Assembly: GCA_023621995.1 (NCBI GenBank)
Contig: JAMOAB010000003.1
Coordinates: 1-61,680, forward strand
Source: Bacillota bacterium
GTDB lineage: Bacteria > Bacillota > Clostridia > Caldicoprobacterales > Xylanivirgaceae
Length of the DNA stretch: 61,680 nt
Direction of reading: 5' to 3'
This document shows positions 10,832 through 15,982 of the stretch, one piece after another. How positions within the stretch are numbered: the stretch's first letter is position 1; each line of letters opens with the position of its first letter. The notes beneath the pieces are model-generated. The model was not told the origin of the DNA. It did not search any database and saw only the letters and a list, made by a program, of their open reading frames with translations. The position numbers and the translations under genes are program-made.

Positions 10832-11068
10832 ATGGCAACTAACAGAAATAGCAACAGAACTTTGGTTCCTGAGGCAAGACAGGCACTTGACAATATGAAG
10901 TATGAAGTTGCAAGTCAGCTTGGTATCAATCTTAAGCAGGGTTATAATGGCGATCTAACAGCGAGAGAGGCTGGATATATCGGCGGTTATATGGTAAAAC
11001 GTATGATAGAAGATGTTCAAAATCAGATGAGTGGACAGCCGATGAATCCTCAGCAACCAGGTCGATAA
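10832..11068 (+). CDS. Small acid-soluble spore protein, alpha/beta type
   Basis: DNA-binding protein that coats and protects spore DNA. The 78-residue product has the family hallmarks: VPEARQALDNMKYEVASQLG, the GPR-protease-type region, and the second conserved block TAREAGYIGGYMVKRMIED. A very strong ribosome-binding site (AGGAGGTGAT) precedes ATG 10832, as usual for these abundant proteins. A TGAATA at about 10757 resembles a sigma-G -35 element, but no convincing -10 was found at the right distance. A perfect palindrome starts at the stop codon. This gene is direct evidence that the host forms endospores. Confidence 0.95.
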   Translation: MATNRNSNRTLVPEARQALDNMKYEVASQLGINLKQGYNGDLTAREAGYIGGYMVKRMIEDVQNQMSGQPMNPQQPGR

Positions 11069-11119
11069 TATATTATAAAGATAGCGAGGTATGCATACCT
11101 CGCTATCTTTATAATATAT
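11068..11119 (+). terminator. Perfect 52-bp palindrome, terminator of the SASP gene
   Basis: Each of the 26 bases on either side of the centre (between 11093 and 11094) pairs, with a GC-containing core around AGCGAGGTATG and AT-rich outer arms. In RNA this gives a very stable stem starting on the last base of the stop codon. It is symmetrical, so it could act in both directions; there is no opposite gene. Confidence 0.8.
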
Positions 11120-11194
11120 ATCTACTATTTTAGGGTTTTATAACTATACATTAATAAGAGGAAGACAACTTTTATCTTGTCAGGTATGTTCTAA

Positions 11195-11223
11195 TTGACA
11201 TCTACTTATGCATTTGATAAAAT
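11195..11223 (+). promoter_or_regulatory. Sigma-A type promoter for pfp
   Basis: TTGACA at 11195-11200, a 17-base spacer, then TAAAAT at 11218-11223. It lies about 90 bp ahead of the phosphofructokinase start and matches the housekeeping consensus in both boxes. Confidence 0.7.
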
Positions 11224-11315
11224 GTGATAAACATATGTAAAAATGTTTAAAGCTATCATTAAAATGTTAACTACAAACAAATTTATAACATAAATGTAAG
11301 GGAAGGTGTATAGAT

Positions 11316-12575
11316 ATGGGGAACAAAAAGACAAATGTAATTTTAGCCCAATCTGGTGGGCCTACAGCAGTTATAAACTCTAGTATTGTGGGGGCATTTG
11401 ATCGTGCAATAGTTGCTCCTAATATAGATAGGGTGTATGGGGCAAAAAATGGCATCGTGGGGGTATTGCAAGAAGAACTTATAGATCTCACAGCACAACA
11501 TGAGGAGACTATGGAAGGGCTTAAATACACTCCTTCATCGGCGTTGGGTTCGTGTAGATACAAATTAGATAAGAACTTGGACAGTCCAGTATATGAGCGT
11601 ATATTTGAGGTGTTTGATGCACATAATGTGGGATATTTTTTCTATAACGGGGGCAATGACTCTATGGATACTGCCCTAAAACTTTCCCAATATGCTGAAA
11701 AAATAGGATATCCTATCAATATAATGGGTATACCTAAAACTGTTGATAATGACCTTTGTGGTACTGATCACTGTCCTGGGTTTGGAAGTGCTGCCAAGTA
11801 CATAAATACATCTCTGGTAGAATTGTCATATGATATAAATGTATATACCTCAGGGACAGTATTACTGTTTGAAGCAATGGGTAGACATGCAGGTTGGCTT
11901 GCTGCCTCAGCAGCTCTATCTAGTTTGGAGATATATGACGGGACGGTACTTATATATATGCCTGAGGTACCATTTGACAGGGATACATTTCTATCCCAGG
12001 TAGAAGAGGCATACAGAAAACATAATCAAGTATTAGTTGTGGCCTCTGAGGGCATTCGGGATACTAGTGGTGAACTTTTGGCTGCTCAGGCAGGTAAGGT
12101 AGATCAATTTGGTCACAAGCAGTTAGGTGGTGTATGTATACAATTAAAAGAACTGATAGAGGAAAATATTACAAAGCGAGCAAAGCTCATAATACCAGAT
12201 CTGCTTCAGCGAAGCGCGATGCATAGTGCCTCTAGGACTGATATTGAAGAGGCATATTGGATGGGGTATAAGGCGGTAGAGTTTGCACTACAGGGCAATA
12301 CTGCCCATATGCCAGCCATAAAGAGACTATCCAACAACCCCTATTCATGGCAGGCCACATTTGTACATCTTGAGGAAGTTGCAAATCATGAGAAGGTATT
12401 TCCTGCTGAGTGGATAACTCCTGAAGGAAATTTTGTGACACAAGAAGCAATAGAATATGTAAAGCCCCTTGTAGAAGGAAATGTATCCATTCCTACTCGA
12501 AATGGTCTACCTAGGTACTACAAATTAGATAAGACCATAATTCCTCAAAAGCTAGATAGATATGATGTAGAATAG
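11316..12575 (+). CDS. pfp: Diphosphate-dependent 6-phosphofructokinase
   Basis: Transfers phosphate between PPi and fructose 6-phosphate, reversible glycolytic step. The 419-residue protein has the phosphofructokinase fold: N-terminal ILAQSGGPTAVINSS, then YNGGNDSMDT and PKTVDND. In ATP-dependent enzymes the first motif is GGDGS and the second PGTIDND; the Asp in GGNDS and Lys in PKTVDND are the marks of PPi use, so PPi specificity is inferred. 'MGRHAGWLAA' binds the sugar phosphate. Start ATG 11316 follows AAGGGAAGGTG. A DeoR regulator follows 25 bp after the stop and may control it. Confidence 0.9.
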   Translation: MGNKKTNVILAQSGGPTAVINSSIVGAFDRAIVAPNIDRVYGAKNGIVGVLQEELIDLTAQHEETMEGLKYTPSSALGSCRYKLDKNLDSPVYERIFEVFDAHNVGYFFYNGGNDSMDTALKLSQYAEKIGYPINIMGIPKTVDNDLCGTDHCPGFGSAAKYINTSLVELSYDINVYTSGTVLLFEAMGRHAGWLAASAALSSLEIYDGTVLIYMPEVPFDRDTFLSQVEEAYRKHNQVLVVASEGIRDTSGELLAAQAGKVDQFGHKQLGGVCIQLKELIEENITKRAKLIIPDLLQRSAMHSASRTDIEEAYWMGYKAVEFALQGNTAHMPAIKRLSNNPYSWQATFVHLEEVANHEKVFPAEWITPEGNFVTQEAIEYVKPLVEGNVSIPTRNGLPRYYKLDKTIIPQKLDRYDVE

Positions 12576-12600
12576 ATGAAACATGCAGGGAGTGGACAGT

Positions 12601-13359
12601 TTGCATATAGATAGAAGAGAGATGGTAAATGCCTACATTCAAAATAAGGGTGAGGCAACTATAAAAGAATTGGAGAAGATGTTCCCTGAAGTATCTACTA
12701 TGACCATACGGAGAGATCTTGCACAACTGGAAGAGGAAGGATATATAGTAAGGGTTAGAGGCGGGGCAAAATCGATAGACAGTCTCACAAACATTAGAGA
12801 AGATGCCTACAGTCTAAGGCTTATGGAGAACGTGGATGGGAAGACCAAGATAGCTAAAAAGGCAATTGAATTTATGGAAACAGGCAGGGCTATATACATG
12901 GACTCTGGCACCACTATGATGTGTCTTGCCAATATGCTGCCTGATAATCACTTCTCCATTTTAACCAGTGGGCCCAATATTGCCTTGGAGATAATCAAAA
13001 GGCATAAGCCATCTGTTACCCTTCTTGGCGGACAGGTAAATAGGGATAATATCTCTATATCGGGAATAAGTGCCCTAAATTTCATAAAAAATATAAATAT
13101 AGATATTGCTTTTATGGCTACATCTGGGTTTTCTCTTGAAAATGGCTTTACAGGAGGAAACTTTGGTGAGTGTGAGATTAAAAAGGCAGTGATGGAGAAG
13201 GCCAATAGGAGAATTATGCTTATGGATCTTGTAAAAATAGATAAGGATATGCCCTATACATTTGCCACCCTTGAAGATATAGATATTCTAGTATGCGATG
13301 GAGAGCTTCCAGAGAGTGTAGAAAAGGCTGTCAAGGAATATGCTATCAAGATAGTTTGA
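12601..13359 (+). CDS. DeoR-family transcriptional regulator
   Basis: N-terminal DeoR helix-turn-helix (IKELEKMFPEVSTMTIRRDL, then LEEEGYIVRVRGGA) followed by the C-terminal sugar-phosphate sensor domain (MDSGTTMMCLANML, TSGFSLENGFTGGNF). Such regulators sense phosphorylated sugars, which suits its place just behind the phosphofructokinase gene. The start is uncertain: TTG 12601 has CAGGGAG eight bases upstream and gives a normal N-terminus (LHIDRREMVNAYIQ), whereas ATG 12583 or GTG 12592 would add up to six residues without a good site. It is probably cotranscribed with pfp. Confidence 0.85.
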   Translation: MHIDRREMVNAYIQNKGEATIKELEKMFPEVSTMTIRRDLAQLEEEGYIVRVRGGAKSIDSLTNIREDAYSLRLMENVDGKTKIAKKAIEFMETGRAIYMDSGTTMMCLANMLPDNHFSILTSGPNIALEIIKRHKPSVTLLGGQVNRDNISISGISALNFIKNINIDIAFMATSGFSLENGFTGGNFGECEIKKAVMEKANRRIMLMDLVKIDKDMPYTFATLEDIDILVCDGELPESVEKAVKEYAIKIV

Positions 13360-13385
13360 TAGAATACTGATATGAAAGAATATAA

Positions 13386-13505
13386 ATTAGACAGATAGTA
13401 AAAGAAATATTTCAATACATGGTCTTTTCTTATACGTTGGACTATAGGATGCTTGGCGGGGCTCTGGCAACTAAACTTCTCATCGATGCCAAAGACAGCT
13501 TATAA
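13386..13505 (+). pseudogene. Remnant of the C-terminus of a 2-oxo acid dehydrogenase E2 gene
   Basis: An open stretch between in-frame stops encodes VKEIFQYMVFSYTLDYRMLG and then GALATKLLIDAKDSL, ending in TAA. This lines up with the very end of E2 acyltransferases, where a beta strand leads into DHRxxDGA and the last helix (AAKFLxxLKxLL). Here DHRVVDG reads DYRMLGG, so both the catalytic His and Asp are gone, and nothing else of the E2 (lipoyl, binding or core domain) is present upstream. It sits 41 bp before lpdA, where an intact E2 gene usually lies. Similarity was judged by eye over ~35 residues. Confidence 0.5.
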
Positions 13506-13546
13506 GGCCTTTACACTACTAGCCAAATGGGAAAGGAGCTAAAGAT

Positions 13547-14911
13547 ATGATCTACGATTTAATAGTTATAGGCGGTGGACCAGCTGGATATTTAGGTGCC
13601 ATAAGGGGAGGTGAAGCCGGCCTCAATACACTCTTAATAGAGAAGAGGGTATTAGGAGGTGTATGTCTCAATGAAGGTTGTATACCATCTAAGACAATTC
13701 TAAACTCAGCAAAGATATATGATTATGCCAGATTTAGTAAGCGATATGGAGTTACCACTGAAGGAGCCCATCTAGATCACGGAGCAGTGGTCAAACGTAA
13801 GAAGAAAGTAGTAAGGACTTTAGTTGCAGGTGTTAAAATGCAGCTTAGGGAAGCCAATGTAACTACTGTAGAAGGTAGTGGCTATATACAAGGCAAGGAC
13901 GAAGATGGATATAAAGTGGTAGCAGGAGATGATGTTTATATTGGTCGAAATCTTCTCATTGCAACAGGTTCTGAAGCTTTAATACCTCCAATCGATGGAG
14001 TTGACGAGGCTTTAGACAGTGGCTATGTGGTTACAAGTAGGGAGATATTTGATCTAAAAGAAGTGCCCAAATCCTTTGTTGTGGTAGGTGGAGGTGTTGT
14101 TGGGCTTGAGATGGCCTCCTACTTCAATTCAGCTGGTAGCAATGTCACAGTCATAGAGATGCTCGATCATATTGCAGGTAATACTGATACAGACGTATCA
14201 GGGATTCTCATGAAGAACTACGAGAAGAAGGGAGTAGAGTTTGCCCTATCATCAAAGGTTATAGCCATAGGGGATGGGAAGGTTATATATGAAAAGGATG
14301 GAAGCACCTACGAGGTAGAGGCGGACAGAGTACTCATGAGTGTTGGACGCAGGCCTGTTACCGCAGGCATAGGGCTCGAAAATATTGGTGTTGAACTGAA
14401 TAGAGACGCCATAGTTGTAGACGAACGGGGAAGAACCAATGTTCCAAATGTATATGCGGCAGGAGATGTAAATGGACATTCTATGTTAGCCCATACTGCC
14501 TATAGAGAGGCAGAAGTATGTATAAACAATATATTGGATAAGGATGATTTAGTGCATTATGAAACCATTGCCTCTGTCATATATACAAACCCTGAGGTAG
14601 CGACCATCGGTGAGACTGAAAAGACTGCTAAAGAAAAAGGTATAGCATATGATGTGGTTAAGCTACCTATGCAATATAGTGGAAGATATGTTGCAGAAAA
14701 TGACAGGGGAGACGGCATATGCAAGCTTCTAGTGGATAGAAATCATAAAAAACTCATAGGTGTACACATGATTGGAAGTTATGCCTCAGAGATCATATAT
14801 GGTGTGGCAGCTATGATGGAGATGGAAATGGGGGTAGAAGATATAAAGAAGATTGTATTTCCCCATCCTACTGTATCAGAGATAATAAGGGAAGGCATCT
14901 TTAGATTTTAG
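13547..14911 (+). CDS. lpdA: Dihydrolipoyl dehydrogenase (E3)
   Basis: FAD enzyme that reoxidises dihydrolipoyl groups of 2-oxo acid dehydrogenase or glycine cleavage complexes. Seen are the FAD dinucleotide fold (IGGGPAGYLGAIRG), the redox disulfide GGVCLNEGCIPSKT, the NAD fold (VVGGGVVGLEMASYF), the second FAD motif (NVYAAGDVNG) and the C-terminal dimerisation motif HPTVSEI with the catalytic His. Length 454 is normal for the form without an extra lipoyl domain. AAAGGAG precedes ATG 13547. No E1 or E2 gene is present nearby apart from the remnant upstream, so its partner complex is encoded elsewhere. Confidence 0.93.
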   Translation: MIYDLIVIGGGPAGYLGAIRGGEAGLNTLLIEKRVLGGVCLNEGCIPSKTILNSAKIYDYARFSKRYGVTTEGAHLDHGAVVKRKKKVVRTLVAGVKMQLREANVTTVEGSGYIQGKDEDGYKVVAGDDVYIGRNLLIATGSEALIPPIDGVDEALDSGYVVTSREIFDLKEVPKSFVVVGGGVVGLEMASYFNSAGSNVTVIEMLDHIAGNTDTDVSGILMKNYEKKGVEFALSSKVIAIGDGKVIYEKDGSTYEVEADRVLMSVGRRPVTAGIGLENIGVELNRDAIVVDERGRTNVPNVYAAGDVNGHSMLAHTAYREAEVCINNILDKDDLVHYETIASVIYTNPEVATIGETEKTAKEKGIAYDVVKLPMQYSGRYVAENDRGDGICKLLVDRNHKKLIGVHMIGSYASEIIYGVAAMMEMEMGVEDIKKIVFPHPTVSEIIREGIFRF

Positions 14912-14923
14912 TATTTCTTAACA

Positions 14924-14958
14924 ATTCATCTCCCACCTTTTACAAGTGGGAGATGAAT
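14924..14958. terminator. Hairpin between convergent lpdA and lplA
   Basis: ATTCATCTCCCAC (14924-14936) pairs perfectly with GTGGGAGATGAAT (14946-14958) around a 9-base loop. No long T-run follows on either strand, so it may be a shared terminator or 3' stabilising hairpin. Confidence 0.6.
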
Positions 14959-15004
14959 AATGTTCTAGAAAGCAGGAAGCTACCTTTTCATAAGTGGTGA
15001 CAGC

Positions 15005-15982
15005 TTACAGGCAGGTAGATACTATATCTTCCAATGAAATGTTTGCAAAATACTCATCTAGAGGATATGGTGATAGGGCTGATCTTATATCTTCTTCACT
15101 ATGACGTATGCCATTTAAAGCCTTTTCAATATCTGATACATCTCGCTTTCCGAAGAAATCTCCGTAGATCTTAGCGCTTTGAATAATACCATTTTGCACA
15201 TCGAAATTTATCTCTATACTTCCTCCAGCAAAACGGGTTTGCTTTGTAAAGTTATATTTGGGGGAGTGACCATAGTTCCACTCCCAAGTGGAATACTTTT
15301 CTTGTACCATTTTCTCTACATTGTTTATGTCTTTATCACTTAATATATATTCCACTCCACCATATCTCTCCATTACATGTTTCATTACCATGTTTTTAAA
15401 TTCTTCTATGGAAAGATTAGTTTTAAGGTGATTTTCTATGTTGGTAACCCTACTGGCAACAGATTTTATGCCCTTCCCTTTTATCTTATCAGGGTTGACC
15501 TTGAGGGCATTTACTAGATGGGACATATTGGATGAAAACAAAAGTGTGCCATGGTGGAGGATACGATTTTTATGTATATACTGTGCATTACCCGAAAACT
15601 TTCGTCCATCTATGGTGAGGTCATTTCTTCCAGAGAGTTTAGCATCTATACCTAAATCTGCCAATACATCGATAATAGGTCTTGTATATTTTTTAAAATT
15701 GGTAAAGCTATCATCAGTATTTGGCATTATAAATGTAAAGTTTATGTTTCCAGGGTCGTGAAACACAGCACCTCCACCAGATAACCTTCTAACTACTGGA
15801 ATGTTGTGTTCTTTTACATATTCTATATTTATCTCAGCAAGGGTATTCTGGTTTTTACCCACTATTATGGCAGGATTATTTATCCATAGCATAAATATAT
15901 CATCATCAAAATGGGTTAACACATATTCTTCAAGTGCTAGGTTGAAATATGGATTTTTATTAGTATTATCAATACAGATCAT
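15005..15982 (-). CDS. lplA: Lipoate--protein ligase
   Basis: Activates free lipoate with ATP and attaches it to a lysine of lipoyl domains. Reading the minus strand, the 325-residue product starts MICIDNTNKNPYFNLALEEY, has the ligase motif VRRLSGGGAVFHDPGN and GRNDLTIDGRKFSGNAQY with the substrate-contacting Lys, and the C-terminal accessory domain (from about residue 245). Start ATG 15982 is backed by GGAGG just upstream. It is convergent with lpdA, so lipoate salvage and E3 cluster here. No lipoate synthase (lipA) or octanoyltransferase (lipB) is present in the window. Confidence 0.92.
   Translation of the reverse strand: MICIDNTNKNPYFNLALEEYVLTHFDDDIFMLWINNPAIIVGKNQNTLAEINIEYVKEHNIPVVRRLSGGGAVFHDPGNINFTFIMPNTDDSFTNFKKYTRPIIDVLADLGIDAKLSGRNDLTIDGRKFSGNAQYIHKNRILHHGTLLFSSNMSHLVNALKVNPDKIKGKGIKSVASRVTNIENHLKTNLSIEEFKNMVMKHVMERYGGVEYILSDKDINNVEKMVQEKYSTWEWNYGHSPKYNFTKQTRFAGGSIEINFDVQNGIIQSAKIYGDFFGKRDVSDIEKALNGIRHSEEDIRSALSPYPLDEYFANISLEDIVSTCL

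What the first reader, a model, noticed from the sequence alone, without database searches (positions are those of the whole stretch)
13386..13505. Fossil of an E2 acyltransferase gene next to lpdA
Thirty-eight codons before a stop resemble the extreme C-terminus of E2 (strand, DHRxxDGA motif, last helix), but the motif reads DYRMLGG and no other part of E2 remains. Intact operons have E2 directly before E3. This suggests loss of a 2-oxo acid dehydrogenase while E3 and lipoate ligase were kept, perhaps for glycine cleavage.
Basis: partly seen in the sequence, partly recalled or inferred. Interest (0 to 1): 0.55.

Follow-up and report, generated by a model that had tools for sequence, protein, structure and literature searches.

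The report
Leftover tail of an E2 gene
A 117-base scrap before a dihydrolipoyl dehydrogenase gene is the broken end of an E2 enzyme gene whose operon was deleted, leaving the dehydrogenase to serve, most likely, glycine breakdown; this is ordinary gene decay, clearly documented.

Summary
Window 13386-13502 reads as 39 codons matching the end of E2 (2-oxoacid dehydrogenase acyltransferase). A profile of 15 E2 proteins encoded directly before the orthologous E3 in relatives ranks it first of 2306 window ORFs (12.0 bits; next 1.7); 0 of 5000 shuffles of the spacer reach that score. The DNA lines up with intact E2 genes up to the E3 start: DHRxxDG reads DYRxxGG, a stop cuts the last codons, and the remainder is frameshifted. 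It is a pseudogene scrap.

In relatives the intact operon is DeoR, zinc dehydrogenase, sorbitol-6-phosphate-type dehydrogenase, E2, E3, fused E1. The window keeps DeoR (64-65% identical), the E2 tail and E3; the middle and E1 are gone. One relative (G013) shows an independent E2 scrap at the same place.

E3 and lplA were kept; gcvT-H-PA-PB lie elsewhere without an E3, and four E2-less relatives keep this E3 plus glycine cleavage genes. But the assembly also holds one intact PDH-like set on a 4.6-kb contig, possibly foreign. Use of E3 by glycine cleavage remains inferred. Known kind; low interest.

The parts
13386..13502 (+). Open stretch of 39 codons homologous to the C-terminus of E2 (strand, DHRxxDG motif, last helix); catalytic His->Tyr and Asp->Gly
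13503..13505 (+). Premature stop TAA where relatives have a Glu codon (GAG/GAA)
   Evidence: DNA alignment with intact E2 genes
13506..13530 (+). Frameshifted last codons of E2 (a two-base gap in the alignment, then CTAGCCAAATGG aligned with the relatives' final codons and stop)
   Evidence: a short stretch, so less certain than 13386-13502
13533..13538 (+). AAGGAG, likely ribosome binding site of E3
   Evidence: read from the sequence
13547..14911 (+). E3, dihydrolipoyl dehydrogenase, intact
   Evidence: TIGR01350 469 bits over a cut-off of 408.8
15005..15982 (-). lplA, lipoate-protein ligase, convergent to E3
   Evidence: TIGR00545 461 bits over a cut-off of 280
12583..13359 (+). DeoR-family regulator, 64-65% identical to the DeoR at the head of the intact operon in G004 and L052
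11316..12575 (+). Diphosphate--fructose-6-phosphate 1-phosphotransferase (PFP), the gene upstream; in G001 and G003 it has become the direct neighbour of E3
   Evidence: NF010675 558 bits

Best explanation
13386-13530 is the decayed 3' end of the E2 gene of a former DeoR, MDR, SDR, E2, E3, E1 operon. Deletions removed everything between the DeoR gene and the last ~40 codons of E2, and also E1 downstream of E3. The scrap cannot work as an acyltransferase: it lacks the catalytic His and Asp, the lipoyl domain and the E3-binding domain. E3 and lplA were kept, most likely because E3 (with lipoate loaded by LplA) is the L-protein of the glycine cleavage system, whose T, H and P subunits are encoded elsewhere without an E3. 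Shown: homology, position, decay, synteny, gene content. Inferred: the order and number of deletions, and that glycine cleavage is the reason E3 stayed.
For: Top of 2306 window ORFs with a local E2 profile, 0 of 5000 shuffles. DNA alignment with 11 intact E2-E3 junctions runs through the motif to the E3 start. 69 of 80 E3-bearing loci carry E2 (>=300 of 462 residues) directly upstream, and 69 of 80 carry the fused E1 downstream. DeoR of the window is 64-65% identical to the DeoR at the head of the intact operon. G013 has an independent E2 fragment at the same place, 36.4 bits, also without E1. gcvT-H-PA-PB next to serine-dehydratase-like genes without E3 in G000, G001, G003. G001, G003, G006 and G013 have gcvH and gcvP, keep this E3 and lack any E2; their PF00364 matches lie in frames of 134-152 aa, or weakly in 335-341 aa frames, none of E2 size with an acyltransferase domain.
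Against: C43 carries an intact E1a-E1b-E2-E3 set in the same assembly, so the window's E3 is not the only E3 on file. Pfam's own E2 model does not see the scrap. Identity to each E2 is only 10-12 of 39 residues in the ungapped register. No close relative with the same scrap could be read: in G001 the place reads N, in G002 the contig begins inside E3. G008 and G028 have gcvH and GDC-P matches but no E3 match better than 1e-70, so in them glycine cleavage, if complete, does without this E3 or the assemblies miss it.
Confidence: 0.88

Rival explanations
1. The resemblance is a chance translation of an intergenic spacer.
For: Short; not found by Pfam; 10-12 of 39 identical residues; best E in the window-wide tblastn only 0.043.
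Against: First of 2306 ORFs, 0 of 5000 shuffles; right strand, right register and exactly the place where relatives have the end of E2; DNA alignment continues to the E3 start.
Confidence: 0.03
2. The scrap is retained as a short translated leader (ATG at 13419, 28 codons) or spacer that couples expression of E3 to the DeoR gene.
For: The frame is open for 39 codons and ends 41 bases before the E3 start; the E3 ribosome binding site lies just behind it.
Against: No ribosome binding site is evident before 13419; no + strand promoter-like site between 13290 and 13546, and the region has no more such sites than shuffles; no second genome in which to test constraint; G003 has E3 directly behind PFP without such a stretch.
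Confidence: 0.05
3. E3 here is kept for the PDH-like complex on C43 rather than for glycine cleavage.
For: An intact E1-E2 set exists in the assembly.
Against: That set has its own E3 at C43:21-1259 and its composition lies outside that of 69 own chunks; E2-less relatives G001, G003, G006, G013 keep the E3 all the same.
Confidence: 0.08

Closest known systems
E2 component of 2-oxoacid dehydrogenase complexes (PF00198 catalytic domain)
   Same: Sequence register of the last strand, DHRxxDG motif and last helix; position directly before E3 as in relatives
   Different: Only the last ~40 codons remain; His and Asp of the motif replaced; no lipoyl or E3-binding domain; premature stop and frameshift
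Gene remnants (pseudogene fragments) left by operon deletion in bacteria (general knowledge)
   Same: Decayed end of a gene between intact neighbours, with an intact copy in relatives
   Different: Nothing unusual in kind; the neighbouring E3 survived, and the same kind of loss recurs around this E3
Glycine cleavage system L-protein (dihydrolipoyl dehydrogenase)
   Same: Intact E3 with invariant C40, C45, H440, E445 (that these are the active-site residues is recalled); gcvT-H-PA-PB elsewhere without E3
   Different: Not in the gcv operon; sits at the former E2-E3-E1 locus next to lplA; activity with GcvH not tested

Membership tests
E2 acyltransferase (as ancestor of the scrap) | Homology to the C-terminal part of the catalytic domain | tested here: met
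E2 acyltransferase (as working enzyme) | DHRxxDG with catalytic His and Asp | tested here: not met
   DYRMLGG
E2 acyltransferase (as working enzyme) | Lipoyl domain, E3-binding domain and rest of the catalytic domain | tested here: not met
   No further match in the spacer or window
Pseudogene fragment | Intact orthologue at the same place in relatives | tested here: met
   69 of 80 loci
Pseudogene fragment | Absence of coding constraint among close relatives | not testable with these tools
   The only congener (G001) reads N there; G002's contig starts inside E3
Dihydrolipoyl dehydrogenase (E3) | Curated model and active-site residues | tested here: met
   TIGR01350 over cut-off; invariant columns
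L-protein of glycine cleavage | gcvH and gcvP present in the genome, no E3 in the gcv operon | tested here: met
L-protein of glycine cleavage | Oxidises dihydrolipoyl-GcvH | not testable with these tools
   needs an enzyme assay

The most novel reading that the evidence does not exclude
In Clostridia this E3 is a repeatedly re-used part: E1/E2 operons are deleted again and again around it while E3 (and lplA) stay as the glycine cleavage L-protein, so that the locus is a natural series of the same reduction. On the E3 tree E2-less copies lie in several separate places (G003; G000/G001; G013; G006/G015; L106/L112; L117/L119; possibly L054), though only G000 and G013 carry a scrap that proves a former E2.
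Probability: 0.45. Interest if true: 0.3.

Novelty: new member of a known kind. Interest (0 to 1): 0.2.

Why it matters
It shows where a 2-oxo acid dehydrogenase operon once stood and explains an orphan E3 next to lplA, which helps to annotate the glycine cleavage L-protein in these genomes. The intact operon in relatives (DeoR, two sugar-alcohol-type dehydrogenases, E2, E3, fused E1) got no substrate from the models searched and is a better target for study than the scrap itself.

Tried and rejected
Pfam on the 39 residues gave nothing; a profile from local relatives was needed. Searches for remnants of E1, of the zinc dehydrogenase and of the SDR in the window and in the two spacers gave only weak matches of the chance kind. 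Promoter and terminator scans of 11000-15100 found no more sites than shuffles. Paper searches: two found nothing, three gave listings in which I saw nothing on this locus; only listings with the starts of abstracts were seen and no paper was opened, so no claim is made about what is in print. Chance resemblance was considered and rejected. A foreign origin of C43 was considered: its tetranucleotide distance (0.26) exceeds all 69 chunks of two own contigs (max 0.198; the reference includes those chunks), and its E2 is 72-74% identical to three genomes of another family of the class, with matches at E<=1e-120 in 5 of 290 other genomes, none of them in its order's listed families f1-f4; recent transfer cannot be told from contamination. 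The tree has 36 rows: the window, 20 of the 23 relatives' E3 rows that were read (L013, L018 and L023 left out), 14 of the 80 collection loci, chosen by me, and the C43 E3 as outgroup; X letters were dropped from the relatives' rows. Some of the 80 collection loci are the same contigs as G genomes (for example L050 and G001, L051 and G013, L114 and G015, by equal contig lengths), so the two sets are not independent.

Full report
Observation. Window 13386-13502 translates as 39 residues followed by TAA. Pfam reports nothing at E<=10. phmmer against all PDB sequences reports two hits only, both E2 catalytic domains (4ofs, 3rqc; E 0.008), aligned over residues 6-36 with the last part of the domain. 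To test this with local sequences, I took the E3 orthologues of 40 related genomes, read the DNA around 23 of them besides the window (three begin inside E3), and built a profile from 15 E2 proteins found directly upstream. Against all 2306 stop-to-stop ORFs (>=15 aa) of the window, the scrap is first with 12.0 bits, E 0.0078; the next is 1.7 bits. Of 5000 dinucleotide-preserving shuffles of 13360-13546, 0 reach 12 bits; the best is 4.2.

What it is. A DNA alignment of the 200 bases before E3 with 11 relatives that have an intact E2, and with G013, runs in register through the motif to the E3 start. DHRxxDGAP of the relatives reads DYRMLGGAL here, so both the catalytic His and the Asp are gone (their role is recalled, from general knowledge of E2 enzymes). 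A Glu codon of the relatives is TAA here. Behind it two bases are missing in the alignment, and the end of the old gene, CTAGCCAAATGG, runs into the likely ribosome binding site of E3 (AAGGAG, 13533-13538). Nothing else of E2, and nothing of the other lost genes, is detected. This is a pseudogene scrap.

The intact operon. In 80 loci from the named genome collection that encode this E3 (the 80 best of 585), 69 have an E2 of at least 300 of 462 matched residues upstream; 1 has an E2 cut by the contig end; 1 has a fragment; 4 have no E2 but less than 1400 bases upstream; 5 have none with at least 1400 bases upstream, one of them (L050) with N runs. A fused E1 follows in 69 of 80; 2 are cut by the contig end with part of E1, 1 ends at once, 8 have none. 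In G004 and L052 the order is DeoR, zinc dehydrogenase, SDR (opposite strand), E2, E3, E1, class II aldolase. For the G004 copy, the SDR matches sorbitol-6-phosphate dehydrogenase over its cut-off (370.5 against 307 bits), the zinc dehydrogenase matches no model over its cut-off, and E1 and E2 match PDH-type models below their cut-offs. The DeoR gene of the window is 64-65% identical to the one heading this operon in G004 and L052. So the window keeps the left end (DeoR), the last E2 codons and E3, and has lost the middle and E1.

Family comparison. In G002 (same family) the order E3, fused E1 (73% identical to that of G004), lplA on the other strand is intact to the right; the contig begins inside E3. 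In G003 (same family) E3 follows PFP by some 40 bases with no E2, and lplA follows. In G001 (same genus) PFP, an N run, E3 and lplA follow each other. The E3 tree groups G003, G001, the window and G002 (97/88), with G002 next to the window (96/83), which would make E1 loss happen more than once in the family; G001's E3 lacks its first 27 residues, so that fork is uncertain. E2-less copies stand in several separate places of the tree, but only the window and G013 show a scrap that proves a former E2.

Why E3 stayed. The genome has gcvT, gcvH, gcvPA and gcvPB in a row, followed by two genes that look like serine dehydratase subunits (my reading of the translations), with no E3 among them; so have G001 and G003 (in G001 only one of the two dehydratase genes was seen). 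Of the 41 genomes, 15 have no PF00198 match better than 1e-50: G001, G002, G003, G006, G008, G013, G015, G021, G028, G030, G033, G034, G035, G036, G038. Of these, 11 have a glycine cleavage marker (gcvH better than 1e-30 or GDC-P better than 1e-20), and 8 of the 11 have an E3 match better than 1e-70; two of the eight, G021 and G034, have an E3 of the other, 34-37% identical type. The misses are G008, G028 (71% complete) and G036 (GDC-P only). Of the 4 without a marker (G030, G033, G035, G038), 0 have such an E3. G002 is not a clean case because it keeps E1. This fits, but does not prove, that E3 is kept for glycine cleavage. lplA next door would load lipoate on GcvH (general knowledge of the enzyme).

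Against a simple story. The assembly also has an intact E1a-E1b-E2-E3 set on the 4550-base contig C43, whose E1a and E3 genes reach the contig ends. Its own E3 is 40% identical to that of the window. Its composition is outside that of 69 own chunks and its E2 is 72-74% identical to three genomes of another family, so it may be foreign. If it is native, this genome lost one 2-oxo acid dehydrogenase, not all.

Verdict. It is an ordinary gene fossil with good synteny support. No new mechanism is involved.

Noticed in passing
L036 (G000:C43:1-4550): Contig with an E1a-E1b-E2-E3 set whose composition and nearest relatives differ from the rest of the genome; contamination or recent transfer.
   Followed up: partly
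L039, L052 and further loci: Recurrent operon of DeoR, zinc dehydrogenase, sorbitol-6-phosphate-type SDR, E2, E3 and a fused E1 alpha-beta of about 830 residues, sometimes with a class II aldolase or lplA; substrate unknown.
   Followed up: partly
   Followed up: yes
L024, L025, L114 (G015, G006): E3 orthologues whose alignment to the window's E3 is broken near residue 124 by extra residues, without E2 or E1 nearby.
   Followed up: no
window 14924-14958: Perfect 13-base inverted repeat between the convergent E3 and lplA genes, possibly a two-way terminator; read by eye.
   Followed up: no
L054:293-1174: Gene that looks like lipoyl synthase directly before an E2-less E3 of the same kind (read by eye from the translation).
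   Followed up: no
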